Assembly (NCBI GenBank): GCA_030765065.1
Contig: CM060990.1
Coordinates: 499,896,190 to 499,960,189 of the forward strand
DNA: 64,000 nt
Origin: Deroplatys truncata
Taxonomy: Eukaryota; Arthropoda; Insecta; Mantodea; Mantidae
Reading direction: 5' to 3'
Positions 4,576-46,004 of the stretch are shown piece by piece. The first letter of the stretch is position 1, and every line of letters starts with the position of its first letter. The position numbers and the translations under genes were made by a program. The notes under the pieces are model-generated. The model was not told the DNA's origin. It searched no databases and was given only the letters and a program-made list of their open reading frames with translations.

Positions 4576-4581
4576 ACTGAA
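4576..4581 (+). repeat. Target site duplication of element 1, left
   Basis: ACTGAA abuts the first base of the palindrome and is repeated in direct orientation at 23205-23210, immediately after its last base. Confidence 0.85.
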
Positions 4582-5330
4582 AGTAGCAATAGAATAGCGA
4601 CTTGAGCGCAGTAGAGAGATGCCGACAAGCGATAAAGTTCTTTGTTCTACGCCGACAAGCCCCGCCCCCTCCCTTTGTGTGCTCACATGCCGCCAGGTCT
4701 CGTGTCGTTAGGCCCCGCCCCCTCTCGCTTTGTGTGCTCACCTAATGCCGGCAGTATCTGTGCTAACAGGTTCTACCCCCTCCCCCATGCGTTCTACTGT
4801 GGCGTCATGACTTGATGGAATTGTTTTCTCGAGTCCTGCCGCCCCTCGGCAAATTAATTAGGTAATGTTCGTCAAACATTTTTTTTATGATTACTAAGGT
4901 CTGCAGATTGCATCCTCGAGCAATTAAGTTTTTTGATTAATGAATTGTTGACTGGAGCTTGAGTATAAGTAGTCTGCTCACGGTAACAGTCTGTCATGTA
5001 ATGAAACACTGCAGCCTTCTTGTATCTGGGGAAATCGCTTGTCCATTAGCTGAACATGTTAGACGCTTTCAACACATTAATAGGCTTTTAAGTTTACATT
5101 CCGGATCTGTTTACATACATTAGCGATCAACGACATACTTCCGTCTGGAGGTAACGGTGACACACATTAGCTGACCCGTTAGACGCTTTCACTACATTAG
5201 CGAACAATGTCAGTAATTGTTTTCCTAAGTGCTCTGCCCAACACTCAACACTTCAGATTTTAGCGATGGAAATGATATAACAAGCAGCAGCTTCTCCAAC
5301 GAGTTCCAAGTTGACCAGGATGCCCGGGTT
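4582..5330. repeat. Element 1 left terminal segment with GC boxes
   Basis: Non-satellite terminal part of the arm. It holds two GC-box-like CCCCGCCCCCT motifs (4660-4670 and 4713-4723), each followed by CTTTGTGTGCTCAC. A TATA-like TATAAG lies at 4964. A duplicated motif, CATTAGCTGA then GTTAGACGCTTTC, occurs at about 5046 and 5164. The arrangement could be an inward-facing promoter, but this is inference. Its GC-rich character contrasts with the AT-rich remainder. Confidence 0.6.
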
Positions 5331-7611
5331 CGAATTACAAATTCAGCTTCTAATAACTCAGAGACTAATTACGATAAAGACATCAAATAAAGTTTATTAC
5401 ATTAATGTCATTAGATAGTTTCTTGTGAATGTATATTTGGGTACATGGTGTCCAGGGTTCGAATACCGATAAAATGTAATTTAATTATAAATTTAATAAC
5501 TCCTAAACTAATTAAGATAAAGACGCCAAATAAACTTTATTGCCTTTATTTTATTAGGTAGTATCTTGTGGATGTGTAATTAGATACCTGACGTTCTGGG
5601 TTCGAGTCTAATGTTTAAATCGTCATTATCTCAGAAACTAAGAGAGGTAGAGGAATTGACCAAAGTATGATTGATAGCTCCTATAAGGGGTAATTAATAC
5701 TGTATATAATTTTCAATCAGTTGTCCTTACTTCGAATCCCGATCTTTCAATCACTTACTTATTTTTTCTCTATACTCTAGAATATGTCACTTAGATTGAT
5801 GCTGTAACTGCATACACAACCTTTAAACATATCAAACTAATATTGTAAATAATTTTGTTTCTGGTGTCCAGGGTTCGAATACCGATAAAATGTAATTTAA
5901 TTATAAATTTAATAACTTCTAAACTAATTAAGATAAAGACGCCAAATAAACTTTATTGCCTTTATATTATTAGGTACTATCTTGTGGATGTGTAATTAGA
6001 TACCTGACGTTCTGGGTTCGATCCGAATTTTAAATCGTCATTATCTCAGAAACTCAGAGAGGTAGACGAGTGAACCAAAGCATGATTGATAGCTCCTATA
6101 AGGGGTAATTAATACTGTATATAATTTTCAATCAGTTGTCCTTACTTCGAATCCCGATCTTTCAATCACATACTTATTTTTCTCTATACTCTAGAATATA
6201 TCACTTAGATTGATGCTGTAACTGTATACAGCACCTTTAAACATGTCAAACTAATATTGTAAATAATTTTGTTTCTGGTGTCCAGGGTTCGAATACCGAT
6301 AAAATGTAGTTTAATTATAAATTTAATAACTTCTAAACTAATTAAGATAAAGACGCCAAATAAACTTTATTGCCTTTATGTTATTAGGTATTATCTTGTG
6401 GATGTGTAATTAGATACCTGACGTTCTGGGTTCGAGCCTAATTTTAAATCGTCATTATCTCAGAAACTAAGAGAGGTAGACGAGTGAACCAAAGCATGAT
6501 TGATAGCTCCTATGAGGGGTAATTAATACTGTATATAATTTTCAATCAGTTGTCCTTACTTCGAATCCCGATCTTTCAATCACATACTTATTTTTCTCTA
6601 TACTCTAGAATATATCACTTAGATTGATGCTGTAACTGCATACAGCACCTTTAAACATATCAAACTAATATTGTAAATAATTTTGTTTCTGGTGTCCAGG
6701 GTTCGAATACCGATAAAATATAGTTTAATTATAAATTTAATAACTTCTAAACTAATTAAGATAAAGACGCCAAATAAACTTTATTGCCTTTATGTTATTA
6801 GGTATTATCTTGTGGATGTGTAATTAGATACCTGACGTTCTGGGTTCGAGCCTAATTTTAAATCGTCATTATCTCAGAAACTAAGAGAGGTAGACGAGTG
6901 AACCAAAGCATGATTGATAGCTCCTATGAGGGGTAATTAATACCGTATATAATTTTCAATCAGTTGTCCTTACTTCGAATCCCGATCTATCAATCACTTA
7001 CTTATTTTTCTCTATACTCTAGAATATATCACTTAGATTGATGCTGTAACTGCATACAGCACCTTTAAACATATCAAACTAATATTGTAAATAATTTTGT
7101 TTCTGGTGTCCAGGGTTCGAATACCGATAAAATGTAATTTAATTATAAATTTAATAACTCCTAAACTAATTAAGATAAAGACGCCAAATAAACTTTATTG
7201 CGTTTATGTTACTAGGTAGTATCTTGTGGATGTGTAATTAGATACCTGACGTTCTGGGTTCGAGCCTAATGTTTAAATCGTCATTATCTCAGAAACTAAG
7301 AGAGGTAGAGGAATTGACCAAAGCATGATTGATAGCTCCTATTAGGGGCAATTAATACTGTATATAATTTTCAATCAGCTGTCCTTACTTCGAATCCCGA
7401 TCTTTCAATCACTTACTTATTTTTCTCTATACTCTAGAATATATCACTTAGATTGATGCTGTAAATGCATACAGCACCCTTAAACATATCAAACTAATAT
7501 TGTAAATAATATTGGTTCTGGTGTCCAGGGTTCGAATACCGATAAAATGTAATTTAATTATAAATTTAATAACTCCTAAACTAATTAAGATAAAGACACC
7601 AAATAAACTTT
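5331..7611. repeat. 414-bp tandem array, left arm (about 6 units)
   Basis: Units are marked by GGTGTCCAGGGTTCGAATAC at about 5448, 5863, 6276, 6690, 7105 and 7519, a period of 412-415 bp. Each unit carries three tRNA B-box-like motifs: GGTTCGAATACC, GGTTCGAGCCT and CTTCGAATCCC. No A boxes and no coding frame. The array ends abruptly at 'AAATAAACTT', where the purine-rich minisatellite begins. Confidence 0.85.
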
Positions 7612-8228
7612 TATAGGGGAAAGGATGCTCTCCTGAAACATTAGGTCTCTAGATAGAAGTATTTATAGGGGAGAGATAGGGAATACCAGGGCTGATGCTA
7701 GGCTAGTCAGATGCTAAAGGAGGGAGGGATATGCTTTATACGAGAGAGATAGGGAACACAAGGAAAGATGCTATACTAAACAGGACTTGAAGGGTAGAAT
7801 ATGAGCGATATAGCAAACCGAGGAGAGGTATTAGGATAGGAGTTTTGAATGATGGAGTACGCGTTTATATGCGAGAGATAGGGAATACGAGGTTCGATGC
7901 TAGGCTAGACGGTGTTGAATGAGGGAATGCATCTTATATGAGAGAGGTAGGGGAATATGATGAGAAGTGCTAGGCTAGTCGGGAAGGTCTGAATGAGAGA
8001 GTATACGTCTATATGGGAAAATATAGGGAAAACGAAGGTAGGTGCTAGGTTGAGAGAGTCTTCAAGGAGGAAAATGCATTTATATGAGAGCGTTAGGGCA
8101 TACGAGGAGAGGTGCTAGTCTAGACATGGTTTGAGGATTAGAGTATACGTTTATATGGGAGAAATATGGAAAACGGGAGAGATACAAGGATAGACAGAGA
8201 TTGAAGGAGGAGGAATGTAGGTTTATAC
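7612..8228. repeat. Purine-rich ~70-bp minisatellite, element 1 left arm
   Basis: Imperfect tandem units of the type GAGAGATAGGGAATACGAGG, then GAGGTGCTAGGCTAGACAGG, then TTGAAGGAGGGAATGCG, then TTTATATGG. The same unit fills the outer arms of elements 2 and 3, which is the clearest sequence link between the three. Confidence 0.8.
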
Positions 8229-8390
8229 TGTAATATAGAGAGTAATTCGATTATAAAACTTTTCTCATCCAGCCTTACAACACTTTTATATACTTATTTT
8301 CTAAACCTTACAAACTTTATATTTGTTAAACAGTAGTGCGCGAGACGGAGAGGGACAAACAGTATATCGGTTTACAGTGAAGTATACATC
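8229..8390. repeat. Family-conserved arm block, element 1 left
   Basis: Begins 'TAATATAGAGAGTAATTCGA', then TTCTCATCCAGCCTTACAAC, 'CTTACAAACTTTATAT', 'GAGACGGAGAGGGACAAA' and 'GGTTTACAGTGAAG'. The same succession occurs in both arms of elements 2 and 3, while the sequence around it differs. A shared functional or ancestral arm sequence is inferred. Confidence 0.8.
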
Positions 8391-8762
8391 CTAACCTATT
8401 CCCACCTTGTTTGTTCTGGATCTTCTCATTGTCTATCATCTAACGTAAACACGTAACAAGACGTAACACAGGAAATCATACATATGGCACATTAAAAAAA
8501 TAAAGGTATATATAATGAAACATAAACAAGTAGACAGAGGGTCGTCGATACATAGAAAACCAGGAGTTGTATGTACTGAGACCATAGATTAGTATAGGCA
8601 AACAACAAAGAAGTGAATTTATAGTGTAAATAGCCAAATATTTTCAAATATTATTATAGTCTAAAAGTATATAACTTAATTATGTATCGAGTATTGAGAA
8701 ATAAACGTTATTCATTATTCACTAATCTCAGATCACTGCAATTGTATTGAATCAATTCACAA
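8391..8762. repeat. Arm segment with a few GTAACA motifs, no gene
   Basis: It contains 'AACACGTAACAAGACGTAAC' near 8447, which resembles the unit amplified in element 2. The remainder is AT-rich and unassigned. Its inverted counterpart is 17783-18154. Confidence 0.55.
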
Positions 8763-9062
8763 TTGCTAATGCCATTCAACTTTCATTCGTCTCTGATACA
8801 TAAACAAATTGCAAAATGGAGAAGGACGAAAGTAATAAAAAGACTCAGGCAGCAAATTTTAAGAAAGAAGAGAAAGATATATGACCGACATTGTTTTGGA
8901 ACACAAATTAGTCTTGAAAATAAAATGACTGATAGCTCTGCTAAGCGTAAGGAAGAGACATGGAAATAAATTGCAAATGAATACAATTCTAGGTTGGAAA
9001 AGAAGATAAACAACATTCATGTAAACCAATTTTTAAAAATCAGTTTAACTGAATACATGTAA
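8763..9062 (+). pseudogene. Myb/SANT-like DNA-binding protein remnant, left arm
   Basis: A basic ORF of 68 aa is followed, after one in-frame TAA, by about 30 more residues to the stop at 9062. The C-terminal part of the first ORF and the continuation ('KMTDSSAKRKEETWK', stop, 'IANEYNSR') match the last helix region of Myb/SANT-like (Myb_DNA-bind_5) domains common in insect transposon and host proteins. The N-terminal helix is weak. The same stop is present in the mirror copy, so the lesion predates or was copied during arm formation. It is probably non-functional unless the stop is read through. Confidence 0.5.
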
Positions 9063-9100
9063 AAAAACATATCACTTTACAAAAAGTAATGCAGACAACA

Positions 9101-9106
9101 TTTATT
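9101..9106 (-). terminator. Polyadenylation signal, left arm cassette
   Basis: TTTATT on the plus strand, reading AATAAA on the minus strand, downstream of the 9159-9368 ORF. Mirror of 17439-17444. Confidence 0.45.
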
Positions 9107-9158
9107 TTTTATAAACATTATCCTATTACATTACTTTACAAAAAACCATACATATTTC

Positions 9159-9368
9159 CTAAAGGCAAAGGTGATAGTCTAGACATTCTAAACACTCAGT
9201 TATATAATCATATACATCACACAGAAAGAGACCTGCATTATCAGTAAAAAAACTAAACATCTCAACAATGTCTGAATGATGTATTTTATAAGTACAAGTT
9301 TTTTGATATTTCAAAGTTCCTGTTAACCATGGCAGTAATTGATTAACACAATTTCTCGATCCTGTCAT
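9159..9368 (-). CDS. Small ORF (69 aa) overlapping zinc-finger ORF, left arm
   Basis: The predicted peptide starts MTGSRNCVNQLLPWLTG and ends with a cysteine/leucine-rich tail. No family was recognised. Its start codon overlaps the stop of the preceding 155-aa ORF by ATGA, an arrangement that can allow reinitiation. The peptide is identical in the two arms. A polyadenylation-type AATAAA lies about 52 bp beyond its stop. It could instead be 3' UTR of the zinc-finger transcript. Confidence 0.4.
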   Translation of the reverse strand: MTGSRNCVNQLLPWLTGTLKYQKTCTYKIHHSDIVEMFSFFTDNAGLFLCDVYDYITECLECLDYHLCL

Positions 9369-9832
9369 GCTATAACTTTAGATGCTTTCAGCTTACTTAT
9401 AATTTCCTCAATCTCTTGTGTGTGACTATTATTACCAGCATCCCTCGACGCAATTAGTAACCTCAATATATTTACTAGTCTATTCGGATTTTCAAGCGTT
9501 GATATCACTGAATCATCATCATCTGAAGATTTCATATTCTTGCAACTTCCGATGTATCCAGATTTTTCACCAACAGTAGTCTCCAGTGAAGGACAGAGGC
9601 TTGATCCGGTATAACATTCCCCTCTATACATCTTCGGATCTTCAAGTGCAGGTGAGAGAGTCGATTCAGTATAACATGTTGCTCTATGAAACTTAAATCT
9701 TGACAAAGAACGATTCTTAAAAATCCGCCCGCATACACAGCATCTAATAACGCGTTTTCCTCCATGTGTAATGTATGAAAAATCGTGTTTCTCATTCGTC
9801 AGTTGCACAGATTTTCCCGGGCAGTAGTTCAT
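9365..9832 (-). CDS. C2HC zinc-finger protein, 155 aa, left arm
   Basis: An open frame from the ATG at 9832 to a stop at 9365. Residues about 31-53 carry 'RCCVCGRIFKNRSLSRFKFH' and then RATC, a C-x2-C-x14-H-x3-C arrangement with the phenylalanine and leucine spacing of zinc-finger domains. The middle is rich in S/T/C/Y with an acidic 'SSDDDDS' stretch. The C-terminus ('EIEEIISKLKASKVIA') is probably helical. A nucleic-acid-binding role is inferred. The frame stays open in both arms with one amino-acid difference, unlike the decayed polB genes nearby, which hints at recent copying or constraint. I do not recognise a named family beyond the zinc finger. Confidence 0.6.
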   Translation of the reverse strand: MNYCPGKSVQLTNEKHDFSYITHGGKRVIRCCVCGRIFKNRSLSRFKFHRATCYTESTLSPALEDPKMYRGECYTGSSLCPSLETTVGEKSGYIGSCKNMKSSDDDDSVISTLENPNRLVNILRLLIASRDAGNNSHTQEIEEIISKLKASKVIA

Positions 9833-10404
9833 GCTAAAACTAAAAGAAATTAAATGAATACGTGAATGCTAACGCTCGAAGGAATTAAAGCGAATGAATG
9901 AATTCATAACACGCACCTATGTATATATCCAGGATGAGGACGACGGAGGGAATTGCGATCAATGCATAGCAGGGAGAAAGGATACTCTCTTGAAACATTA
10001 GTCATCTAGACAACTATTGTTCACGGAGCCTGTAGACGTCAGGTTGAATGGGACAGACCTCAGGTTCAAATCTTTAAGGGCACGGACCCAGCCTTTTGCC
10101 TGTCATGTATACTAAACCATCCTAACAGCGTAACATTACGTTACAACGACACGTAACCAGAACATGGCGAAGGCGAGCATGGAAAAAAGGATGCTCTCTG
10201 GGAACATTACTGGAAAAGGATGCTCTCTGGAAACACTAGTCATCCACACAACGGGTTGTCCCTAACATTTCCAGATTTCGGGTCGTTCAACATCGTGACG
10301 CGCCCCTGTCATCTACATTTCAACGAAATTTTACCTCCTGAATTAAAGTTTGGTGATCTGTATAGACATGTACAACATGCATTACGCTATGTAACAGACT
10401 CATC
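9833..10404. repeat. Arm spacer with repeated GGATRCTCTC motif, left
   Basis: Contains three copies of an AAAGGATGCTCTCTGGAAAC-type motif (about 9976, 10185, 10214), also found once at 7620 at the minisatellite edge. A GTAACATTACGTTACAACG segment lies near 10129, and a tRNA B-box-like GGTTCAAATC near 10063. No gene. The mirror is 16141-16712. Confidence 0.55.
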
Positions 10405-13103
10405 ACGTTATGTAACAACACGATCACGCTAGGTAACAACATGTTCACGCTATGTAACAACAGGATCACGCTATGTAACAACATGATCACGCTATGTAAC
10501 AACATGATCACGCCATGTAACAACATGATCACGCTATGTAACAACATGATCACGCTATGTAACAACATGATCACGCTATGTAACAACATGACCACGCTAT
10601 GTAACAAAACGATCAAGCTATGTAACAACTGATCACGCTATGTAACAACATGATCATGCTATGTAACAACCTGAGCACGCTATGTAACAACATGATCACG
10701 CTATGTAACAAACTGAGTACGCTATGTAACAACATGATCACGCCATGTAACAACTGATCACGCTATGTAACAACATGCTCAAGCTATGTAACAACTGATC
10801 ACGCTATGTAACAACATGATCACGCTATGTAACAACCTGAGCACGCTATGTAACAATCTGATCACGTTATGTAACAACTGATCACGCTATGTAACAACAT
10901 GATCACGCTATGTAACAACATGATCACGCTATGTAACAACATGATCACGCTATGTAACAACATGTTCACGCTATGTAACAACATGACCACGCTATGTAAC
11001 AAAACGATCACGCTATGTAACAACACGATCACGCTATGTACAACACGATCACGCAATGTAACAACTGATCACGCTATGTAACAACCTGATCAAGCTATGT
11101 AACAACTGATCACGCTATGTAACAACATGATCACGCTATGTAACAACCTGAGCACGCTATGTAACAACATGATCACGCTATGTAACAACCTGAGTACGCT
11201 ATGTAACAACATGATCACGCCATGTAACAACTGATCACGCTATGTAACATCATGCTCAAGCTATGTAACAACTGATCACGCTATGTAACAACACGATCAC
11301 GCTATGTAACAACCTGATCAAGCTATGTAACAACATGATCACGCTATGTAACAACCTGAGTACGCTATGTAACAACATGATCACGCCATGTAACAACTGA
11401 TCACGCTATGTAACAACATGCTCAAGCTATGTAACAACATGTTCACGCTATGTAACAACATGATCACGCTATGTAACAACATGTTCACGCTATGTAACAA
11501 CATGATCACGCTATGTAACAACATGACCACACTATGTAACAACATGATCATGCTATGTAACAAAACGATCAAGCTATGTAACAACATGATCACGCTATGT
11601 AACAAAACGATCAAGCTATGTAACAACCTGAGCACGCTATGTAACAACCTGATCAAGCTATGTAACAACTGATCACGCTATGTAACAACCTGAGCACGCT
11701 ATGTAACAACCTGATCACGCTATGTAACAACTGATCACGCTATGTAACAACATGCTCAAGCTATGTAACAACATGATCACGCTATGTAACAACATGTTCA
11801 CGCTATGTAACAACATGTTCACGCTATGTAACAACATGATCACGCTATGTAACAACATGACCACACTATGTAACAACATGATCATGCTATGTAACAAAAC
11901 GATCAAGCTATGTAACAACATGATCACGCTATGTAACAAAACGATCAAGCTATGTAACAACCTGAGCACGCTATGTAACAACATGTTCACGCTATGTAAC
12001 AACATGATCACGTTATGTAACAACATGATCACGCTATGTAACAACATGATCACGCCATGCAACAAAACGTTCAAGCTATGTAACAACCTGAGCACGCTAT
12101 GTAACAACATGTTCACGCTATGTAACAACATGAACACGCTATGTAACAATACGATCACGCTATGTAACAATCTGATTACGCTATGTAACAACTGATCACG
12201 CTATGTAACAACATGATGACGCTATGTAACAACCTGAGCACGTTATGTAACAACATGACTACGCTATGTAACAAAACGATCACGCTATGTAACAACTGAT
12301 CACGCTATGTAACAACCTGAGCACGCTATGTAACAACATGACCACGCTATGTAACAAAACGATCACGCTATGTAACAACTGATCACGCTATGTAACAACC
12401 TGAGCACGCTATGTAACAACCTGAGCACGCTATGTAACAATACGATCATGCTATGTAACAACCTGATCACGCTATGTAACAACATGATCACGCCATGTAA
12501 CAACCTGAGCACGCTATGTAACAACATGATCACGCTATGTAACAACATGAACACGCTATGTAACAATACGATCACGCTATGTAACAATCTGATTACTATG
12601 TAACAACGGATCACGCTATGTAACAACATGATCACGCTATGTAACAACCTGAGCACGCTATGTAACATCATGATCACGCTATGTAACAACCTGATCACGC
12701 TATGTAACAACATGCTCACGCTATGTAACAACTGATCACGCTATGTAACAACATGATCACGCTATGTAACAACCTGAGCACGCTATGTAACAACATGATC
12801 ACGCTATGTAACAACATGTTCACGCTATGTAACAACACGATCACGCTATGTAACAACACGATCACGCTATGTAACAACATGGACACGCTATGTAACAACA
12901 TGAACACGCTATGTAACAATACGATCAAGCTATGTAACAACCTGAGCACGCTATGTAACAACATGATCACGCTATGTAACAACATGAACACTCTATGTAA
13001 CAACCTGAGCATGCTATGTAACAACATGATGACGCTATGTAACAACCTAATCACGCTATGTAACATGAACACGCTATGTAACAACATGATCACGCTATGT
13101 AAA
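10405..13103. repeat. 21-bp satellite array, element 1 left arm
   Basis: About 2.7 kb of head-to-tail units with core ATCACGCTATGTAACAAC, mostly 21 bp with some 19-20-bp variants. Because 21 is a multiple of three, long periodic 'LCNNMIT' or 'LLHSVIM' frames appear on both strands; they are not genes. Variants such as GAGCACG, GTTCACG and ACCACG are interspersed without the unique spacers that a CRISPR would have. Confidence 0.9.
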
Positions 13104-13462
13104 TAGGGTGGACCATTTAAGTTGAGGCTATACAATATATCCAAAACTAAGCGTTGTAGAAAGAAATGTCTTTAAAAAAACTTGATTGATATTATGGCGA
13201 AAATAAATGCTGCTAGTCGTGTTTCGTTTGGAGGCCGTTATGAGGGTCATTTTGGGTCAATTTATTCTTTTAAATGGGAACCTACAATTAGGGTCCCATT
13301 TAAAAAGACCCTGAAATGACTCTCACTACGTCCTCCAAACGAAATACGACTAGCAGCATTTACTTTCGCCATAATATCAATCAAGTTTTATTAAAGACAT
13401 TTCTTTCTACAACGCTTAGTTTTGGATATATTGTATAGCCTCAACTTAAATGGTCCACCCTA
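13104..13462. mobile_element. Palindromic MITE at the centre of element 1
   Basis: A roughly 357-bp hairpin sequence begins TAGGGTGGACCATTTAAG and ends with its complement. The inner arms CGTTTGGAGG and CCTCCAAACG flank the centre at about 13283. It is flanked by satellite on both sides, with TA at each edge. The same family occurs at 35033-35402 and, truncated, at 1664. Symmetry of the whole 18.6-kb element passes through the middle of this MITE. Confidence 0.85.
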
Positions 13463-17386: not shown

Positions 17387-17438
17387 GAAATATGTATGGT
17401 TTTTTGCAAAGTAATGTAATAGGATAATGTTTATAAAA

Positions 17439-27470: not shown

Positions 27471-27478
27471 ACATTCTC

Positions 27479-33549: not shown

Positions 33550-34775
33550 CCCTGCCTCTCTTCCCGTTTTCATATATTTTCCCATACAAACGCATACTCT
33601 ACTTCTCAAACTCTGTCTGGATTAGTACCTCTCCTCCTATTCCCTACCTCTCTCATATAAAGCGCACTACCCTACTTCAGCTCTCTCCTACCATAGGTTC
33701 TCTCTCCGTTTTCCATATCTTCCCCACATACACGTATACCCTACTCCTTAACCTCTGTCTAACTACCGCTTCTCGGATTCCCTACCTCTAACACGTAAAG
33801 GGAGTTCCCCTCCTTCAACCCCTGCTCTACCTCGGAACTCCCCTCGTTTTCCCTATCTCTCCCATGTAAACGGATTTTCCTCCTTGAAGGTTCTCTCAAC
33901 CTAGAATCTGCCCTCGTCTCTCCATATAAACCTACACTCTATCATTCAAACCCTCCTAGCCTAATCCCTCTCCTCGGTTTGCTAGCTCTCTCATATAAAA
34001 TACATATTATACCCTTCAAGCTCTGTCTAGTCTATACCTCTTCCCGCATTCCCTATCTCTCCTATATATAATTCCATATTCCCTCCTTCAGCATCTAACT
34101 AGCCTATCATATGTTATAGTTTTTCCTATCTTTCCGATATAAACACCTACTCCACACCTCAAACTCTGTCTAGCCTAGCACTTCTCCTCGTATTCCCTAC
34201 CTCCCGTACAAAGCGCATTCCCCTCCTCCAGACCCTGTATAGCCTAGCATCGGCCCTGGTCTTCCCTATCTCTCATATAAACGTATTTTCCTCCTTGAAT
34301 GCTCCTCCAACCTAGCCACTCCCATCGTTTTCCTCGTCTCCTCATATAAACGCATACTCTGTCATTCAAACCCTCCTAACCAAACACCTCTTCCCGGTTT
34401 GCTATCTCTCCCATATAAGTCATATTCTACCTTTTAAGCCCTGTCTAGTCTAGCATTTCTTCTCGTATTTCCTATCTCTCCCGTATAAAGCGTATCGCAC
34501 CCTCCTTCAGCATCTGTCTAGCCTATTATCTCTTCACGTTTTCCCTATCTTTCCCATATAAACGCATACTCCACACCTCAAACTCTGTCTAGCACTTCTC
34601 CTGGTACTCCCCACCTTCACATATAAAGCATATCCCCCCTCCTCCAACTCCTACTCTACCTCGGATCTGTCCCCGTAGTCCCTATCTTCCCGGTATAACT
34701 CACGTTCCTCCTTGAACCGTCGCATCTACCCTCGTTTTCCTTATCCTCTCCGATATAAACGCAAAAGTGGCCCAG
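33550..34775. repeat. Purine-rich minisatellite, element 2 right arm
   Basis: Inverted counterpart of 24716-25885, with the same unit order and scattered substitutions. Confidence 0.8.
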
Positions 34776-34801
34776 CTCCCCCTATATAACCTACTAACAT
34801 T

Positions 34802-37071: not shown

Positions 37072-37089
37072 AATAGGTATATATAGAGA

Positions 37090-38130
37090 ATTCTGACACC
37101 GTTTTTTGGGCATATATGGGAAAGGATAGGGAAAACGCGACTAGATGGGACGATTCAAGGAGGAAAATGAGTTTATATGGGAGAGATAGGGAATACGACG
37201 ACCGATACTATGCTAGACAGGGTTGAACGAGGGAGGGCGTTTATATGGAAGAGATAGTGGAGAGGTGTTAGGCTAGACAGAGATTGAAGAGTAGAGTATG
37301 AGTTATATGAGAGGTATAGTAAATCGAGGAGAGATATTAGGCTAGGAGTGTTTTAGTATGTGTTTATAAGGAGAGACGAGAAAACAGAGAGATGTCATGC
37401 TAGGATAGACAGGTGTTAAAGTTAGGTTTATATAGGTTAGATAGGAAACCAAGGAGAGATACTCAGCTAGAGAGGGGCAGGAGGGAATGCGCTTTATGAG
37501 AGGTAGGGGATACGGGGAGTGGTGTTAGGCTAGAAAGAGGATAAGAGTAGAGAATGCATTTATATGTATGAGTGGTATAGGAACAGGAGGAGAGGTATTA
37601 GGCTAAGGAGGTTGAGTATGCGTTTATAGGGAGAGACGAGAAAACGGAGAGATCATCAGCTAGACAGGGGGCAGGAGGGGAATGCGCTTTATGAGAGGTA
37701 GCGGACACGGAGAGACATGTTAGACTAGACAGAGGTTTAGAGTAGAGTATGCGTTTATATGTATGAGAGCTACAGGAACAGGAGGAGAGGTATTAGGCTA
37801 AGGAGGTTGAGTATGCGTTTATAAAGAGAGACGAGAAAACAAAGATCATATGCTAGGATAGACAGGTGTTAAAGGTAGAATGTGTTTTATATAGGTTAGA
37901 TAGGAACCCAAGGAGAGATACTCAGCTAGACAGGGGGTAGGAGGTGAATGCGCTTTATGAGAGGTAAGGGGTACGGGGGAGATGCTAGACTAGACAGAGG
38001 TTGAGAGTAGAGAATGCGTTTGTATGTATGAGAGGTGTATGTAAACGAGGAGAGCTGATAGGCTAGACAAATACTGAAGGAGTAGGAATATGAGCTTATA
38101 TACCGGAGAGATAGGAGGTGTTAAACTTTG
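37090..38130. repeat. Purine-rich minisatellite, element 3 left arm
   Basis: Imperfect ~70-bp units (GGGAGAGATAGGGAATACG, AGGCTAGACAGAG, GCGTTTATATG). A ~270-bp higher-order block containing GAGACGAGAAAACGGAGAGA is repeated two to three times. Confidence 0.78.
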
Positions 38131-38221
38131 AAAGCGACTTTAGACGAGATCGTCACGGAAAGATGTTTCCTAACAATGCTGGAACATTAATTCTAGACAG
38201 CTGTAGCACGTAACCCTCACA

Positions 38222-38510
38222 TGCTAAAAAGATGACCCACACACGGAATAAAGTGACCCACTCACGGAAAAAGGTGACACACTCACGGAAAAAAGTGACC
38301 CGTTAAGGGAAAAAAGGTCACACACTCACGCAAAAGGTGACCCACTAAGGGAAAAAGCTGACTCACTCACGGAAAAAAGGTGACCCACTCACATAAAAAG
38401 GTGACCTACTCACGCAAAAGGTGACCCACTCAGGGAAATATGTGACCCACTCACGTAAAAAGGTGACCCACTCACGCAAAAATGTGACCCACTCACGCTA
38501 AAAGGTAAGT
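38222..38510. repeat. 21-bp satellite, element 3 left arm
   Basis: About 13 units of AAAAAGGTGACCCACTCACG with 19-22-bp spacing. Right-arm counterpart at 43395-43560 has only about 8 units. The sequence is unrelated to the element 1 satellite although the unit length is the same. Confidence 0.85.
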
Positions 38511-38514
38511 AATT

Positions 38515-39057
38515 CAGCTACTATCACAGGAGAATAAATTCCAGGGGCAGGGAGTATCTTAGCTGTATATGATTTCACATGCAATTCAGCTAGTATCATG
38601 AGCATTTAAGCTAATTCAGCTAGCATCACAGGAGGGTATATTCCAGAGGCTGACTGCATCACAGCTGTGTATGATTTCACAGGTAATTCAGATAGTATCG
38701 TAGGTATTTGGGCTAATTCAAGTATCATAGGTGCTTAGAGTAACTCAGTTAATACCACAGGAAGCTAGATTCCAGGGGCAGGGCGTATTATAGCTGTATA
38801 TGTTTTCACAGGCTATTCAGTTAGTATCGGTGGCATTTTAGCTAATTCAGCTAGTATCACAGGACGCTGACTGCATCATAACTGTGTATGATTTCACAGG
38901 TAATTCAGATAGTATCGTAGGTCTTTGGGCTGATTCAAGTATCATAGTGCTTAGGGTAACTCAGCTAGTATCCCAGGGTAGGACAGATTCCATGGTTTAG
39001 CGTGTGTATAGTTCCGTATGATTTCACAGGTAATTCAGATAGTATTGCAGGTATTCA
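38515..39057. repeat. AATTCAGCTAGTATCACAGG array, element 3 left arm
   Basis: Repeats of TAATTCAGNTAGTATCACAGG-type motifs, with a larger unit including CCAGGGGCAGGGAG and GTATATGATTTCACAGG. The inverted version is at 43064-43395. Confidence 0.75.
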
Positions 39058-39058
39058 T

Positions 39059-39205
39059 GGTAATATAGAGAGTAATTAGATTATAAACATTTCTCATCAA
39101 ACGTTACAACACTTGATATACATTTTTTCTAAATCTTACAAACCTTTTATATGTTAAACAGTTAGTGTGCGAGGTGTAGAGGGATAAACTGCATATCGGT
39201 TAACA
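39059..39205. repeat. Family-conserved arm block, element 3 left
   Basis: Starts GGTAATATAGAGAGTAATTA, then TTTCTCATCAAACGTTACAA and TAGAGGGATAAACTGC. Homologous to blocks in elements 1 and 2. Confidence 0.78.
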
Positions 39206-39529
39206 AATTGAAAAGCTTTGGGTCAACATACCTTTATTTTAGTTCGTTGTAGGTGTCTCTCCCCTTTTATCTAGGCTTGAGACTAGCACTGGGATTGCTC
39301 CTAATCCCAGGGTTACCACCTTCCCTTCCATCTTCTTCTTTCTTCATCAGGCGTCTGCTAGTTGCATAAACAGCATACGGATAAACTTAATTTTTTAAGA
39401 TTGTAGACTCACGAGAAAATCTTCATCTTCGACTTACATTCTCTTAAGCACTGTTTGTAATACTGTAATGTCCATACGCATATGTAGTTAAAATTAATCT
39501 GCTGGCTGAGTATCGACTAGTTAACAGTA

Positions 39530-42500
39530 TTGGAAACCTGTGACAAAACATTTAAAACACGGAATCAACCTGTTTACCTAGAAACTGGTATGGAGTCAAC
39601 GATGGAAGCGAAATTCAAGAAATTGGTGACTGAAATGGAGGAATCTCAGCTTAAGGGTAGCAACTGGGCTTTGCTTGCTGTAGAACGAGTTCGACTTCGT
39701 ATCCACAAGTACAATCCGTTACGAGGAAGTAGCTACCTACTACTACCGCCATCTGTTGAAGCAAGGAAAGCCTGAGTAAACATCCAGAACTCTAGGGATG
39801 AGAAATGTTTCATGTACTCTATATTAACTAAATTCATAGGGAAGAATGCACAGCGTGTGAACAAATACAAAAAACTTCAAGATAAGTACGACTTCAGCTG
39901 TGTTTCCTACCCTACTCCACTTTCTCAAATACCTAAATTTGAGAACCTTAACAAGATGTCTATCAACGTTATCGGGCTGGATGAGAAGCATGAAGAGTAT
40001 CCAATAAAGGTTACTAGCACTGAACTACCTGAACATCGTGACCTGCTACTATTGAGTGACAGTTGTGGAAAACATCACTATGTATATATAAAGAATTTTG
40101 AGAAACTCGTTCGACGTCAGAAAACTAAACGTAATAGACGTGTTTATACCTGCAAGCGCTGGTTTACACATTTTGATGATCAGACCGGGCGAAGTGGACT
40201 AGAAAAACTAGAAGAACATGCATCCATCTGTAATCAACATGGTGTCACGAGGGTAGTTATGCCTATAAATGATAAATCAATTGTTATGTTTAAAAATGTT
40301 GAGAGGATGTTAAAACTGCCTTATGTCATCTATGCTGATTTTGAGAGTAATGCGTATACCCAATCCTGAAACTTCCTATACAATCCCTTATCAAGAGCAT
40401 ACGCCAATGAGCTTCTGTGTTTACGTGAAGCCTACATCCAGTGTTGAACATATTGAAACTGGTCTTGCTAAGCAACCTCATGTATATCGCGGTGCTGATG
40501 CTGTTCAGAAGTTTATGGAATACCTGTCGTTCATTGCAAAGGAAATTAATAATGTATACAAATCTGTCAAGCCTTTGAAACTTACGGATCAACAGCAAAG
40601 GTATTTTGAGTCTTCTACGCCATGCTACTTGTGTGGAAAACCTTTTACAGAAGAGAACTACAAAGTACGCGACCATGATCACATCAGCGGCGAATATCGT
40701 GGAAGTCTACACAATGAATGCAATTTAGCCTGCAAAAGAACTAAGTATATTCCCGTCTTCATGCATAACCTTAGCGGATATGACTCTCATTTCATTGTTA
40801 AGGAGTTGGGGTGTACAAGTGAATGTGTGCAGGTAATTCCTAACTCTGAAGAAAGCTATATCTCATTCACCAAGTATGTAGGAGATATAAAGCTTCGGTT
40901 TATGGATAGCTTTCAATTCCTCAGTACAAGCTTGGATAAGTTGATAAAAAATCTAACCTCATATCCTGACACTAGAGTACTTCGGAGAAGACAAATTGAA
41001 GTTGATGACTCGTAAGGGAGTATTTCCATATGATTTTGTCACGTCATGGAATGTTTTGCCACCCAAGGACTCCTACAATAGGTTAAATGAAAAAGAAATT
41101 AGCGTGCTGACTGCGATCATCCTAGAAATCTATGGGAGCTGTTTAATGTGAGAAACCTAGGAGAGTACAGCGATCTCTACTTAACTTCAGATGTGCTTCT
41201 TCTAGCTGATGTCTTTGAGACGTTCAGAAAGCAAACCCTCAAAACACACAAAGTTGATCCTGCACATTATTTTACCTCTCTAGGACTTACATGGGATGCC
41301 ATGTTACTGTATACTGGAATTAAGCTGGAGCTGTTACAAGATTATGATCAACTACTCATGGTGGAATCAGGCATAAGAGGAGGTTTATGTCAAGTTTCTC
41401 ATCGGTATGCAGAGGCTAATAACACTTGTATGCAGAAATGTTATCCGTCGAGACCAACCCAATTTATCACATACAAGGACGCCGATAATCAGAATGGGTG
41501 GGCAATGTGTCACGCCATTTCGTTTGGTGGATTTCAGTGGGTTTCTCCTGAAGAAATCAACTTAGAAAGACTACAAGAAGATGATCCTCATGGCTACATA
41601 TTAGAAGTCGACATCGGGTATCCTGCAGAACTTCACGATCTACACAACGATCTACCTTTCCTGTCTGAGTGTATGAAACCATTGGAAGCATCTACAAAGA
41701 AACCGATACCTCATCTTGGACCCCGAAAGAAGTATGTAGTGCATTACATGGCTTTGAAGCAGGCTCTTAGTCATGGACTACGACTAAAAAAACCCATCGT
41801 GTGCTAAAATTCCGACAGTCTCGGTGGTTGAAACCTTATGTGGAATTTAACAACAGGCTACGACTTCAAGCTGCAAATGACTTCGAGAAGGATCTCTACA
41901 AGATCTTTAACAACGCCATGTTTGGAAAAAAACTATGGAGAACCCGCGTAACCGTGTGGATATACGACTGGTGACAAATGAGAAGACTCTGGAAAAGTTG
42001 ATCGCCAAGCTACGTTTATTGATAGGACGATATATGCTGCTAATCTAGCTGCTGTACATATGGCCTCTCATCAGATTGTGTTCAACAAGCCTATATACAT
42101 TGAAATGAGTGTGTTGGACATCTCCAAGACATCAATGTACCGGTATCACTATGATGTGTTGTTACCGTATTATGGAGCTGAAAACCTGAAGCTTATGTAT
42201 ATGGACACTGATTCATTCATTCATCGAGTGAGAACTGAGGATGTGTACCAGGACCAGCTACGTTTTCTCGAGCACCTAGATACATCTGATTATCCCACAC
42301 GTCATATCTGCTATTCAGCTCTAAACAAGAAGGTGTTGGGAAAATTTAAAGATAAGGCTAACGGTAAAATCATCCAGCGCTTTGTCGGACTACGACCAAT
42401 GCACTAGATATCCACGGCTCAATGATAAAAAATTAAAGGTATAAAACGTAGCGCTATTAAGCAGCACATTGCGTTTGACAGCTATGCAGGCTGTCTTAAA

Positions 42501-42675
42501 TCCTGTGAAATCATCAGAACGCACATGAATCTAATCCTATCACGAAAACATGCTGTTATCACAGTGCAAGTGAATAAAATTACATTGAATCCCTTTAATG
42601 ATAAAAGAGTTATTGCTGAGAATGGAATAACTACCTATGTGTATGGACATTACAGTATTACAAACAGTGCTTAAG
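39530..42675 (+). pseudogene. polB: Family B DNA polymerase with endonuclease VII-like domain, broken (element 3)
   Basis: Order of pieces: N-terminal region (39530-39775, 'TEMEESQLKGSNWALLAVE'); 39812-40369 ending in exonuclease I (YADFES); 40323-41015 with the HNH module (CYLCG, DHDHISGEYRG, HNECNL) and exonuclease II (HNLSGYDSHF); 41148-41807 with exonuclease III (YLTSDVLLLADVFE); a frame-shifted motif B stretch (about 41880-41960, NNAMFGK); 42060-42407 with intact motif C (MYMDTDSF); and a C-terminal tail to 42675. It resembles the element 2 gene closely along its length. Unlike element 2, the motif C aspartates are present. Several frameshifts and stops still make it a pseudogene. Its 3' end lies inside the right arm. 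Confidence 0.88.
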
Positions 42676-42914
42676 AGAATGTAAGTCGAAGATGAAGATT
42701 TTCTCGTTAGTCTACAATCTTAAAAAATGAAGTTTGTCCGTGTGCTCTGTATGCAACTAGCAGACGCCTGATGAAGAAAGAAGAAGATGGAAGGGAAGGT
42801 GGTAACCCTGCCATTAGGAGCAATCCCAGTGCTAGTCTCAAGCCTAGATAAAAGGGGAGAGACACCTACAACGAACTAAAATAAAGGTATGTTGACCCAA
42901 AGCTTTTCAATTTG

Positions 42915-43063
42915 TAAACCGATATGCAGTTTATCCCTCTACACCTCGCACACTAACTGTTTAACATATAAAAAAGCTTGTAGGATTTAGAAAAAAAGTA
43001 TATCAAGTGTTGTAACGTTGGATGAGAAATTTTTACAATCTAATTACTCTGTATATTACCATG
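42915..43063. repeat. Family-conserved arm block, element 3 right
   Basis: Inverted copy of 39059-39205, with AACGTTGGATGAGAAATTTT and AATTACTCTGTATATTACC. Confidence 0.78.
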
Positions 43064-43395
43064 AATACCTGCAATACTATCTGAATTACCTGTGAAATCA
43101 TATGGAACTATACACACGCTAAACCATGGAATCTGTCCTACCCTGGGATACTAGCTGAGTTACTCTAAGCACCTATGATACTTGAATCAGCCCAAAGACC
43201 TACGATACTATCTGAATTACCTGTGAAATCATACACAGCTATGATGCAGTCAGCCTCTGGAATATACCCTCCTGTGATACTAGCTAAATTAGCTTAAATG
43301 CTCATTATACTAGCTGAATTGCATGTGAAATCATATACAGCAGAGATACTCCCTGCCCCTGGAATCTATTCTCCTGTGATACTAGCGGAATTACT
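43064..43395. repeat. AATTCAG-type array, element 3 right arm
   Basis: Inverted counterpart of 38515-39057, shorter by about 200 bp. Confidence 0.7.
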
Positions 43396-43560
43396 TACCT
43401 TTTGCGTGAGTGGGTCACCTGTTTGCGTGAGTGGGTCACCTTTTGCGTGAGTGGGTGACCTTTTTACCCTTAACGGGTCACCTTTTTCCGTGAGTGGGTC
43501 ACCTTTTTCCGTGAGTGGATCACATTTGTTCGTGAGTGGGTCATCTTTTTAGCATGAGAG
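43396..43560. repeat. 21-bp satellite, element 3 right arm
   Basis: About 8 units of GCGTGAGTGGGTCACCTTTT, the inverted form of 38222-38510. Confidence 0.82.
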
Positions 43561-43664
43561 GGTTACGTGCCACAGCTGTCTAGAATTAGTGTTCCAGCAT
43601 TGTTAGTAAACATCTTTGCGTGACGATCTCTTCTAAAGTCGCTTTCAAAGTCTAGCACCTCCCC

Positions 43665-44416
43665 TCCTATTCCTATCTCTCCGGTATATAAGCTCATATT
43701 TCTACTCCTTCAGTATCTGTCTAGCCTATCAGCTCTCCTCGTTTTCTTATACCTCTCATACATACAAACGCATTCTCTACTCTCAACCTCTGTCTAGTCT
43801 AGCATCTCTCCCCGTATCCCTTACCTCTCATAAAGCGCATTCCCCTCCTACACCCTGTCTAGCTGAGTATCTCCCCTTGGGTTCCTATCTAACCTATATA
43901 AAACACATTCTACATGTCTATCCTAGCATATGATCTCTTTGTTTTCTCGTCTCTCCTTATAAACGCATACTCAACCTGCTTAGCCTAATACCTCTCCTCC
44001 TGTTCCTGTACCTCTCATACATATAGACGCATAGTCTACTCTAAACCTCTGTCTAGTCTAACATCTCTCTCCGTATCCCCTACCTTCTCATAAAGCGCAT
44101 TCCCCTCCTGCCCCTCTCTAGCTGATGATCTCTCCGTTTTCTCGTCTCTCTCTACAAACGCATACTCAACCTCCTTAGCCTAATACCTCTCCTCCTGTTC
44201 CTATACCACTCATACTTATAAATGCATTCTCTACTCTAAACCTCTGTCTAGCCTAACACCACTCCCCGTATCCCCTACCTCTCATAAAGTGCATTCCCTC
44301 CTGCCCCTCTAGCTGAGTATCTCTCCTTGGTTTCCTATCTAACCTATATAAACTTAACTTTAACATCTGTCTATCCTAGCATGGGATCTCTCTCGGTTTT
44401 TTCTTCTCTCCTTATA
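43665..44416. repeat. Minisatellite, element 3 right arm, inner part
   Basis: Inverted counterpart of 37090-38130. It is interrupted by the mariner at 44417 and resumes at 45708-45960. Confidence 0.75.
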
Positions 44417-45705
44417 CGAGGGGCATTATTTATATTTTGAGTCTAATAATTAAAACAAAGTAATTTCTGATTGAAAACTGCTTTATTGTTTTTCAAAACA
44501 TTCTCCTTTATGATCAATACACTTTTGCAGTCATTTGAACCATTTGTCAAAGCATTTACTCCAGTCTTCTTGAGACACCTCCAAAACAATGTTTTTGAAG
44601 GCATCAACGGCTTCTTCTGCCAACGAAAATCGTTCTCCACGCAATTTATTCTTGATTTTCGGGAACAAAAAGAAGTCATTGGGTGCCAAATCAGGACTGA
44701 ATGGCGGATAACCCATCAATTCGACTTTTTGAGCCTTCAAATACTCTGTTGTTAGACGAGATATGTGTGTGCTCGCATTGTCTTGATCAAGAACGATCCT
44801 ATGGTTCTTGTTGGTTTTCCTTACTTCACTGAAGACTGCCGGCAAACAAATGGTTGTTTACCATTTGGCATTGACCGTTTTACGTTCCTTTAAAGGCACT
44901 GTTGCAATATGGCCGGTTTTGCTGAAAAAGCAGGCGACCATTTGCTTCGAAGTGCTTCGAGCGCGAACAACTTTTGGTGGATTTGCTTCATCTTTAAACA
45001 CCCATACAGTCGACTGCTGTTTACGTTCCGGCTCATATGCATAGACCCATGATTCGTCACCAGTTACAATCTTATATACGTCTTTTGAGGCATCGCCGTT
45101 GTATTTCGTGAGCATTTTTGTACACCAATCCACATGAGCATCTTTTTGAGATTGCTTCAAATTATGTGGGATCCAACGAGAGCAAACCTTTTTCACGGCT
45201 AAATAATCATGCAATATTTTATATACTGGTGGAACTAATATCTAGGGTTGCCTCAATCTCACAATTTGTCGTATGACGATCTTTCATTATTAGTTTTTGC
45301 ACAACATCAATGTTTTCTGGCACAACAACTGATTTTGGACGACCTTCACGAACTTCATCATTGAGCGAACGGCGGCCACGATTAAATTCGTTATACCAGC
45401 GTTTCACAGTGGCAAAGGATGGAGCTTTATCGCCAAATGTGGAAGTTAATTGATCAATGCACTCTTGTCTTGATAATCCACGTCGAATGTCGTAATAAAT
45501 CATTGCACGAACATTTTCACGTGTTAATTCCATGTTTTTGTTGACACACCATTTTCAAGTTAGTGTAAACAAAACAAATAACGCTCTATTGACAAAATGT
45601 TTGAAGTAGATTGTGGTAAAAAATGTCAAAATTTCCATTGGAAACGTTAGATGGCACCTACAACATTAGGGTTGACAAGGCTCAAAATATAAATAGTGCA
45701 CCTCG
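44417..45705 (-). mobile_element. Mariner transposon, 1289 bp
   Basis: Imperfect terminal inverted repeats: CGAGGGGCATTATTTATATT on the left and, inverted, CGAGGTGCACTATTTATATT on the right. TA dinucleotides sit at 44415-44416 and 45706-45707. The minisatellite sequence on either side joins smoothly (CTCTCCTTATAAAC), so this is a clean insertion younger than element 3. Confidence 0.93.
44531..45533 (-). pseudogene. Mariner transposase, frameshifted and nonsense-mutated
   Basis: The minus-strand gene of about 334 codons is the usual mariner length. The N-terminal paired HTH region (45533-45219) starts MELTRENVRAMIYYDI. A frameshift near 45215-45225 moves to the next piece (45214-44858) with the first catalytic aspartate in 'VTGDESWVYAYEPE'. 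A TAA at 44858-44860 then interrupts it. The last piece (44845-44531) has 'LDQDNASTH' with the second aspartate and 'YPPFSPDLAPNDFFLFP' with the third (D34D-type spacing). With only two clear lesions the copy is relatively young. Confidence 0.92.
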
Positions 45706-45998
45706 TAAACACATCCTAAACCACTCCTAGCCTAATACCTCTCCTCGATTTGCTATACCTCTCATATAACCCATACTCTACTCCTCAACCTCTGTCTAGC
45801 CAAACACCTCTCCACTATCTCTTCCATATAAACGCCCTCTCTCGTTCAACCCTATCTAGCATAGTATCGGTCGTCGTTTCCCTATCTATCCCATATAAAC
45901 CCATTTTCCTCCTTGAACCGTCCCATCTAGTCTCGTTTTCCCTATCATTTCCCATATATGCCCAAAAACTGTGCCAGAACCCTCTATATATACCTACT

Positions 45999-46004
45999 TA
46001 CATA
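45999..46004 (+). repeat. Target site duplication of element 3, right
   Basis: TACATA immediately after the last base of the inverted repeat. Confidence 0.88.

What the first reader, a model, noticed from the sequence alone, without database searches (positions are those of the whole stretch)
4576..46004. Three elements form one family with 6-bp duplications, AGTAG ends, and polB as the only recognisable replication gene
Seen: element ends AGTAGCAATAG (1), AGTAGGTTATATAG (2, right) and AGTAGGTATATATAG (3, right). Flanks are ACTGAA/ACTGAA, AAAATT/AACATT and TACATA/TACATA. A shared 70-bp minisatellite and a roughly 165-bp conserved block occur in all six arms. Elements 2 and 3 carry polB with an endonuclease VII-like insert. 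Known: polB plus 6-bp duplication fits the Polinton/Maverick lineage. Inferred: a distinct reduced lineage in which giant satellite-filled arms replaced the usual gene set and integration is supplied in trans.
Basis: partly seen in the sequence, partly recalled or inferred. Interest (0 to 1): 0.95.

Follow-up and report, generated by a model that had tools for sequence, protein, structure and literature searches.

The report
Giant palindromic mobile elements with polymerase
These are jumping elements of about 17 to 20 thousand bases built as one huge inverted repeat; the best-kept kind carries a DNA polymerase gene in each half and none of the genes its viral relatives use to insert or pack themselves, so it probably borrows insertion from full relatives in the same genome.

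Summary
The surrounding 4.29-Gb genome explains it. Well-kept copies of the polB family are 17-20-kb inverted repeats with an intact 1,225-codon PolB frame in each arm, read outwards, and no other plausible gene in the copy scanned. All 73 close polB pairs found in capped lists are divergent. Exact 6-bp duplications flank 11 of 12 polB-type and 9 of 10 element-1-type end pairs. In five paired copies the two arms are closer to each other than to any other copy (clear in three, weak in two), so arms are homogenised around replication or insertion. PolB is under purifying selection and groups with insect adintovirus-type PolBs. None of 150 polB hits lies within 30 kb of 112 scored integrase hits, but a Polinton with intact integrase, the same AGTAG start and a matching 6-bp flank is present. 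Elements 2 and 3 are old copies whose centres were deleted; element 1 belongs to a second young palindrome family without polB, with an axis of its own. Best reading: a palindromic, integrase-less branch of the Polinton/adintovirus lineage that copies itself through hairpins (inferred) and is inserted by Polinton integrase in trans (inferred).

The parts
4576..4581 (.). target duplication ACTGAA, left of element 1
4582..23204 (.). element 1: palindrome without polB, arms 8.7 and 9.9 kb (7.8 kb aligned at 99.3%)
23205..23210 (.). target duplication ACTGAA, right of element 1
4582..4665 (+). element 1 end, similar to the ~99-bp centre of A-type polB palindromes
5446..7611 (+). 414-bp tandem array, left arm (83-84% to the array beside the centre of A-type polB palindromes)
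18932..22340 (-). 414-bp tandem array, right arm
9365..9868 (-). orphan 167-aa ORF (zinc-finger-like by eye), left arm, read outwards like polB
16677..17180 (+). the same 167-aa ORF, right arm
10368..13102 (+). 21-bp satellite, left arm
13464..16177 (-). 21-bp satellite, right arm
13253..13313 (.). axis of element 1, inside a hairpin-forming dispersed repeat also found at 1666-1931 and 35027-35378
24687..24692 (.). target duplication AAAATT, left of element 2
24693..34795 (.). element 2: old polB palindrome, arms 92.6% identical, centre deleted
34796..34801 (.). target duplication AACATT, right of element 2 (5 of 6)
28960..31900 (+). element 2 right-arm polB, broken by frameshifts and stops, 5' end missing (end approximate)
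27236..28765 (-). element 2 left arm: inverted 3' part of the second polB plus downstream arm
28771..28958 (-). element 2 left arm: inverted 5' remnant of the second polB
37066..37071 (.). target duplication TACATA, left of element 3
37072..45998 (.). element 3: old polB palindrome, arms ~92% identical over most of their length, centre and left polB deleted (junction 39487-39490)
45999..46004 (.). target duplication TACATA, right of element 3
39487..42650 (+). element 3 polB, broken, 5' end missing, with endonuclease VII insert (end approximate)
8230..8376 (-). 165-bp block, element 1 left arm
18167..18313 (+). 165-bp block, element 1 right arm
26292..26454 (-). 165-bp block, element 2 left arm
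32981..33143 (+). 165-bp block, element 2 right arm
39042..39205 (-). 165-bp block, element 3 left arm
42913..43077 (+). 165-bp block, element 3 right arm

Best explanation
A palindromic, integrase-less branch of the Polinton/adintovirus lineage. SHOWN: well-kept copies are 17-20-kb inverted repeats with AGTAG...CTACT ends and 6-bp duplications; each arm of the best-kept copies holds an intact PolB frame read outwards; the copy scanned has no other plausible gene; PolB is under purifying selection and keeps its exo and pol catalytic residues; the two arms of a copy are homogenised around replication or insertion; palindromes exist around at least two clearly different axes (polB family and element 1); a Polinton with intact integrase, the same AGTAG start and a 6-bp flank match lives in the same genome. 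INFERRED: PolB copies the element from its AGTAG ends, probably protein-primed; each displaced strand is self-complementary and snaps back into a hairpin of nearly 9 kb whose two sides are copied and repaired against each other, so arms stay alike and new palindromes can form where a hairpin primes; the double-stranded form is inserted by Polinton integrase acting in trans. Element 1 would be a further dependant that borrows both polymerase and integrase. Elements 2 and 3 are old copies whose palindrome centre was deleted, leaving one broken polB.
For: 59 of 59 close polB pairs divergent, modal spacing 8,714-8,720 bp (hits, 150 scored of 16,735 candidates); 14 of 14 further pairs divergent. 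Copy A: arms 99.8% identical; copy B: 99.9% over 8.7 kb; AGTAG ends, duplications GACAAT and GTGCCC. 6-bp duplications in 11 of 12 end pairs (copy B is one of them), 9 of 10 in the element-1 family, and in the 20.1-kb C11 copy, whose inner arms match at 98.3% over 1.7 kb around a 514-bp unpaired centre. Arms closer to each other than to any other copy in 5 of 5: within-copy differences 1, 3, 3, 9, 0 per ~3.7 kb; nearest other copy 4-5 (A, B), 44 (C, E), 87 (D); split support 0.996 and 1.000 for C and D, E identical, only 0.867 and 0.741 for A and B. dN/dS 0.05-0.36 in 10 of 10 chosen, non-independent comparisons. Catalytic residues invariant in 19 rows. 0 of 150 polB hits within 30 kb of the 112 integrase hits scored (of 11,715 candidates); nearest 713 kb. 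Polinton: integrase with rve and chromodomain, AGTAG start, GTTAAC/GTTAAC, 17.25 kb.
Against: Trans integration is untested: Polinton and palindrome ends share AGTAG plus an A/T-rich stretch, little else. Protein priming is inferred from the family. Host gene conversion between arms could also keep them alike, although elements 2 and 3 have arms diverged 7-8% over most of their length (12% in one satellite stretch). The C11 subfamily has a 514-bp centre that is not palindromic and, like the A centre, in part resembles element 1's end region, so its axis need not be an independent origin. Two of the centres read pair imperfectly. 32 of 150 polB hits, 7 of 35 further hits and 8 of 40 ends were single and not followed. 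1 of 12 end pairs lacked the duplication and 1 of 10 matched 5 of 6. No extrachromosomal hairpin has been seen.
Confidence: 0.6

Rival explanations
1. The palindromes spread as satellites of virus particles: replicated by their own PolB but packed in Polinton or adintovirus capsids, with the satellite arrays as stuffer that keeps the genome at the size the capsid holds.
For: Sizes lie near Polinton size: A-type polB palindromes 17.20-17.71 kb (16 of 16 end pairs formed from 40 listed ends, one of them the pair without duplication), element-1 type 17.02-17.06 kb in 7 of 17 pairs, one Polinton copy 17.25 kb.
Against: The C11 polB copy is 20.1 kb, element-1 copies reach 19.6 kb and one is 10.2 kb; only one Polinton was measured end to end. 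No particle or packaging signal was tested.
Confidence: 0.2
2. The palindromes are made by the host: single units inserted, then inverted duplication and arm-to-arm gene conversion (as in sex-chromosome palindromes) made and maintain them.
For: Arms are nearly identical; long palindromes are known to convert (recalled). Single polB hits and single ends exist and were not followed.
Against: Both outer ends are true element ends with the duplication directly outside, so the palindrome was complete at insertion in those copies; old relics have arms diverged 7-8%, so conversion after insertion is weak.
Confidence: 0.08
3. The elements insert themselves: the endonuclease VII-type (HNH) insert of PolB, or a cryptic small protein, makes the 6-bp staggered cut.
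For: PolB is the only recognised gene and carries a conserved nuclease motif.
Against: The insert's cysteines and histidines are invariant in all 19 aligned PolBs, including an adintovirus PolB; a 38%-identical relative sits beside its own rve integrase in a viral contig, so the insert does not replace integrase there. Element 1 has no polB yet its family has the same 6-bp duplication.
Confidence: 0.1
4. Assembly artefact (fold-back reads).
For: Perfect long palindromes are a known artefact type (recalled).
Against: The two flanks of a copy are different sequences joined by a 6-bp duplication; arms differ by a few bases and centres are asymmetric; decayed palindromes with diverged arms exist in the window.
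Confidence: 0.02

Closest known systems
Polinton/Maverick transposons
   Same: 6-bp target duplication, AGT-starting ends, inverted terminal repeats, family B polymerase of the Polinton/adintovirus group (definition from passages of PMC8097293)
   Different: No integrase, ATPase, protease or capsid gene in the copy scanned; nearly the whole element is one inverted repeat; polB in two divergent copies; much of the rest is tandem repeat
Adintoviruses
   Same: PolB of the same family: 46% to Ladona dragonfly adintovirus PolB; hits of that PolB in this genome are 47-48%
   Different: Adintoviruses are defined by hexon and integrase as well (passages of PMC11071296); neither was found here
Foldback elements (Drosophila FB, Tetris)
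   Same: Long inverted repeats filled with tandem repeats; link to satellites (Tetris PMC4079207: search listing only)
   Different: FB elements make 9-bp duplications (recalled) and are not known to me to carry a DNA polymerase; here 6 bp and PolB
Palindromic defective genomes of protein-primed or hairpin viruses (adenovirus left-end inverted duplications, self-complementary parvovirus genomes; recalled)
   Same: Snap-back replication makes self-complementary genomes
   Different: Those are short-lived by-products; these are heritable, high-copy genomic families with an intact polymerase gene
Bidnaviruses
   Same: Carry an adintovirus-type PolB (passage of PMC11071296)
   Different: Also carry parvovirus-type NS1 and capsid genes; none found here

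Membership tests
Polinton/Maverick | 6-bp target duplication | tested here: met
   11 of 12 polB-type end pairs, 9 of 10 element-1-type pairs, C11 copy
Polinton/Maverick | AGT-type ends and terminal inverted repeats | tested here: met
   AGTAG at the young ends read; arms are inverted repeats
Polinton/Maverick | protein-primed family B DNA polymerase | tested here: inconclusive
   PolB of the lineage with catalytic residues kept; priming itself not testable; absent in element 1
Polinton/Maverick | rve-type integrase in the element | tested here: not met
   Left arm of copy A has no such ORF; 0 of 150 polB hits within 30 kb of the 112 integrase hits scored, a capped list
Polinton/Maverick | packaging ATPase, protease, capsid proteins | tested here: not met
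   Only other ORFs of at least 100 aa inside the left arm of copy A: 110 aa in the minisatellite, 154 aa antisense to polB; other copies not scanned for ORFs
Adintovirus | PolB of the adintovirus group | tested here: met
   Tree of 38 rows: palindrome PolB nested among insect and unnamed rows, Ladona adintovirus PolB further out in the same tree; OTU-like N-terminus not tested
Adintovirus | hexon and chromodomain integrase | tested here: not met
   same limits as above
Foldback transposons | long inverted repeats with internal tandem repeats | tested here: met
Foldback transposons | 9-bp target duplication (recalled) | tested here: not met
   6 bp; 0 of 12 and 0 of 10 pairs match over 7 or 8
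Bidnavirus | PolB together with NS1 helicase and parvovirus capsid | tested here: not met
   No further plausible ORF in the left arm of copy A

The most novel reading that the evidence does not exclude
A further way of life for DNA transposons: an obligately palindromic, hairpin-replicating element that carries only its own replicative polymerase, in two divergent copies, rebuilds one arm from the other each time it moves, and takes its integrase from only distantly related Polintons; with element 1 as a second-level dependant that borrows both polymerase and integrase, giving a three-tier chain of dependence within one genome.
Probability: 0.4. Interest if true: 0.92.

Novelty: new variant of a known kind. 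Interest (0 to 1): 0.82.

Why it matters
Long perfect palindromes are normally unstable in genomes (recalled), yet here many copies of 17-20 kb persist and spread. If the arms of a copy are made identical around insertion, arm divergence dates each insertion, and comparing arms tests hairpin replication from sequence alone. The system separates two functions that Polintons keep together (copying in cis, inserting in trans) and shows a source of dispersed satellite arrays. If integrase is truly supplied by Polintons, one genome holds full, polymerase-only and gene-poor members of one dependence chain, which makes the question of how Polintons, viruses and their satellites grade into each other testable.

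Tried and rejected
Rejected or weakened: (1) Reduced Polinton with arms around one polB: well-kept copies have two polBs. (2) Origin from the Polinton read here: its polB is ~26% identical over 180 aa and its fetched flanking stretches share no DNA with copy A at blastn E 1e-3. (3) A strict packaging size: weakened by the 20.1-kb copy. (4) A full element with the closest PolB in this genome: the 35 scored hits (27,901 candidates) of the Ladona PolB gave 14 divergent pairs and 7 singles; singles were not followed. (5) Relatives in IMG/VR: none with the single protein; two with the alignment, 36-38%, without long inverted repeats in the parts held. (6) Element-1 ORF: none of 12 candidates scored, no PHROG, only sub-threshold Pfam hits. 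(7) PDB: no hit for PolB or the Polinton capsid-like ORF; the protease-like ORF had a weak hit to a viral cysteine protease, E 0.0038; capsid and protease names for the Polinton are mostly by eye (31 homologues of the capsid-like ORF carry no telling name). (8) Rfam: nothing. (9) First duplication count was 0 of 12 because the query began one base inside the end; corrected. (10) Of 10 centres fetched, 6 showed a complete AGTAG-loop-CTACT (97-100 bp; 5 with exactly matching side-arms), a seventh a truncated form; one held the loop motif without a closing end and two missed it. (11) I first took the C11 centre, and that of C8:55.2M, for independent palindrome axes by eye; a self-comparison showed the fetched 301-base midpoints are not palindromic, and a 4-kb fetch showed C11 inner arms 98.3% identical around a 514-bp unpaired centre, part of which resembles element 1's end region. 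The claim of three axes was cut to two, and confidence lowered from 0.62 to 0.60. Literature: listings showed no palindromic polB transposon; of PMC8097293 and PMC11071296 only passages were read.


Full report
WHAT THE WINDOW SHOWS. Element 1 (4582-23204) is flanked by ACTGAA on both sides and has the same AGTAGCAATAG end on both sides. It is one palindrome: 7.8 kb of its arms align at 99.3%; the right arm is longer by about three copies of the 414-bp repeat. Element 2 (24693-34795; AAAATT/AACATT) has arms 92.6% identical; element 3 (37072-45998; TACATA/TACATA) 91.6-92.6% in its main stretches and 87.9% in one satellite stretch. The 165-bp block hits six places, one per arm, and the ~70-bp minisatellite is in all six arms. 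Pfam finds Endonuclease_7 over its cut-off in a piece of each polB and DNA_pol_B_2 over its cut-off in element 3, just under it in element 2.

THE GENOME. The window lies in a 4.29-Gb assembly. A 234-aa piece of element 3 PolB gave 150 scored hits (16,735 candidates), nearly all 91% identical, with open frames up to 1,225 codons. Of these 150 hits, 118 form 59 close pairs, all minus-then-plus, so divergent, with modal spacing 8,714-8,720 bp; 32 are single. The Ladona adintovirus PolB found 35 scored hits (27,901 candidates) of further subfamilies: 14 divergent pairs, spaced 7.7-7.8 kb (2) or 12.2-12.7 kb (12), and 7 singles. The lists are capped, so counts are lower bounds.

INTACT ANATOMY. 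Two copies, A and B, were read in pieces. Arms are 99.8% (A) and 99.9% (B) identical, and all four polB frames are 1,225 codons. From the end inwards an arm of A has AGTAGGATATATAG, the 69-bp minisatellite, a 21-bp array, 98-, 120- and 144-bp arrays, the 165-bp block, polB with its 5' end towards the centre, a 417-bp array, and a centre of about 99 bp. Inside the left arm of A the only other ORFs of 100 aa or more are one of 110 aa in the minisatellite and one of 154 aa antisense to polB. Other copies were not scanned for ORFs.

INSERTION. Exact 6-bp duplications flank 11 of 12 tested end pairs; matches over 7 or 8 bases occur in 0 of 12; mismatched pairs match in 1 of 132. The failing pair seems rearranged: its left flank matches the right flank of an end 75 kb away, and its right flank is the same as that of a further copy. 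Forty of 40 scored terminal 405-bp matches are 100% identical (1,616 candidates), so the family is young; 32 of them form 16 pairs of 17.20-17.71 kb, 8 are single. The element-1 family behaves alike: 40 of 40 scored ends at (rounded) 100% (1,855 candidates), 9 of 10 exact 6-bp duplications, the tenth 5 of 6, and 17 pairs of 10.2-19.6 kb, 7 of them between 17.02 and 17.06 kb. A copy of another polB subfamily, C11, is 20.1 kb with AGTAGGATATATAG at its left end, the corresponding CTACT end on the right and TATATC on both sides.

ARMS ARE COPIED FROM EACH OTHER. In about 3.7 kb of arm, five paired copies differ between their own arms by 1, 3, 3, 9 and 0 bases. The nearest other copy is 4-5 away for A and B, 44 for C and E, and 87 for D (13 young arms plus element 3; element 2 was left out). 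The split is strong for C and D, E's arms are identical, and it is weak for A and B. The centres fit: side-arms read AGTAGAGATAATATG, AGTAGAAATAGAAT(G) or AGTAGCCTTATTATG in different copies, each with its own exact complement on the other side (5 of the 6 complete centres), while the ~60-bp loop between is conserved; one more and one pair with a mismatch. Old relics have diverged arms, so conversion after insertion is weak; I place homogenisation around replication and insertion.

AXES. The A centre resembles the first ~85 bp of element 1's ends. The C11 copy has inner arms 98.3% identical over 1.7 kb around a 514-bp unpaired centre; these inner arms share no DNA with the right arm of A, but part of the centre resembles element 1's end region at 81%, so this centre is different but perhaps not independent of A's. 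Element 1's own axis lies in a dispersed repeat that is itself a hairpin and occurs outside the elements at 1666-1931 and 35027-35378. So palindromes formed at least twice, once in a hairpin-forming repeat, which fits snap-back priming.

ELEMENTS 2 AND 3 ARE RELICS. Aligned to the A arm, element 3 jumps from position 5561 of the left arm to 2371 of the right arm with about 4 bases shared at the junction: the centre and the left polB are gone. Element 2 lost its centre (2473 left, 2659 right) and 1.7 kb of its left polB, but keeps inverted pieces of it. Their single polB is decay, not design.

POLB. The exo and polymerase acidic residues are invariant in a 19-row alignment and present in copy A, as are cysteines and histidines of the endonuclease VII insert (motif roles recalled). 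Against this, Pfam's DNA_pol_B_2 does not reach E 0.1 on the intact frame. Ten chosen comparisons of open frames between copies give dN/dS of 0.05-0.36 (585-1,025 codons, not independent). Relatives: Hylaeus 67% (over 56% of the query), Rhodnius 56%, Halyomorpha 52%, Ladona adintovirus 46% (best 120 of 1,892 listed). The tree of 38 rows nests the palindrome PolB among insect and unnamed rows, sister to Hylaeus (100/100), with the Ladona adintovirus further out.

WHO INSERTS THEM. None of 150 polB hits lies within 30 kb of any of the 112 Polinton-type integrase hits scored (11,715 candidates); the nearest is 713 kb. The same genome carries Polintons: the copy on C3 has an integrase with rve and chromodomain, further ORFs that look like capsid and protease by eye (weak or no support), a terminal repeat of about 146 bp, AGTAGTATATACC ends and GTTAAC on both sides; length 17.25 kb. 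Its polB is far from the palindrome's. In a 17.4-kb viral contig a 38%-identical PolB relative sits beside an rve integrase and no long inverted repeat was seen in the 15.6 kb held, so PolBs of this class can be linked to integrase. Trans integration is the most likely reading, but it is inferred.

ELEMENT 1. A second palindrome family, polB-less, with a 167-aa orphan ORF in the place and direction of polB. The 150 scored genomic hits of that ORF (7,117 candidates) are 97-100% identical, 146 of 150 without stops, and the list is dominated by divergent pairs (pairs not counted). It shares the 414-bp repeat (83-84%), the 165-bp block (88%) and the minisatellite with polB palindromes. Its ends correspond to their centre. 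It would need both polymerase and integrase from others.

MECHANISM AND CERTAINTY. Shown: anatomy, duplications, arm homogenisation, two axes, selection on PolB, no integrase found nearby, a Polinton with integrase. Inferred: protein priming, the hairpin intermediate, trans integration, dependence of element 1. Sizes near 17 kb suggest a packaging limit, but the 20.1-kb copy weakens this.

NOVELTY. By lineage it is a variant of a known kind: defining Polinton features (integrase, capsid set) were tested and not met, so I do not file it as a Polinton, only as derived from that lineage. The listings of nine literature searches show no such element, but most subscription papers and the repeat databases were not searchable.

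Noticed in passing
window 35602-36174 (-): Fragment resembling a retroelement integrase (sub-threshold rve hit) between elements 2 and 3; outside the elements, so not their integrase.
   Followed up: partly
window 1666-1931, 35027-35378 and 13105-13466: Dispersed hairpin-forming repeat (miniature-transposon-like by eye); element 1's palindrome axis lies inside one copy.
   Followed up: partly
G000 C9:228309908-228385536 and C9:125234716: One palindrome end pair without duplication; its flanks match those of ends 75 kb and about 103 Mb away, suggesting recombination between copies or a nested insertion.
   Followed up: partly
G000, e.g. L003-L006: Many near-identical intact Polinton polB (1,281-codon) and integrase (363-aa) frames in the capped lists, so Polintons look recently active in this genome.
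   Followed up: partly
window 5446-7611 and 18932-22340: The 414-bp unit holds GGTTCGAATACC, like a tRNA-gene B box (motif recalled); Rfam gave no hit in 5000-7700.
   Followed up: partly
window 9365-9868 and 16677-17180: Orphan 167-aa ORF of element 1, without stops in 146 of 150 scored genomic copies; function unknown, zinc-finger-like by eye.
   Followed up: partly
window 59629-60933: 121-bp tandem array of about 11 copies outside the elements.
   Followed up: no
L083, L084, L085, L088 centres: A conserved ~60-bp loop at the palindrome centre that in element 1 sits at the ends: possible replication origin or hairpin signal. Two copies whose polB hits score differently (L083, L088) share the same centre side-arms, which hints at recombination between copies.
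   Followed up: partly
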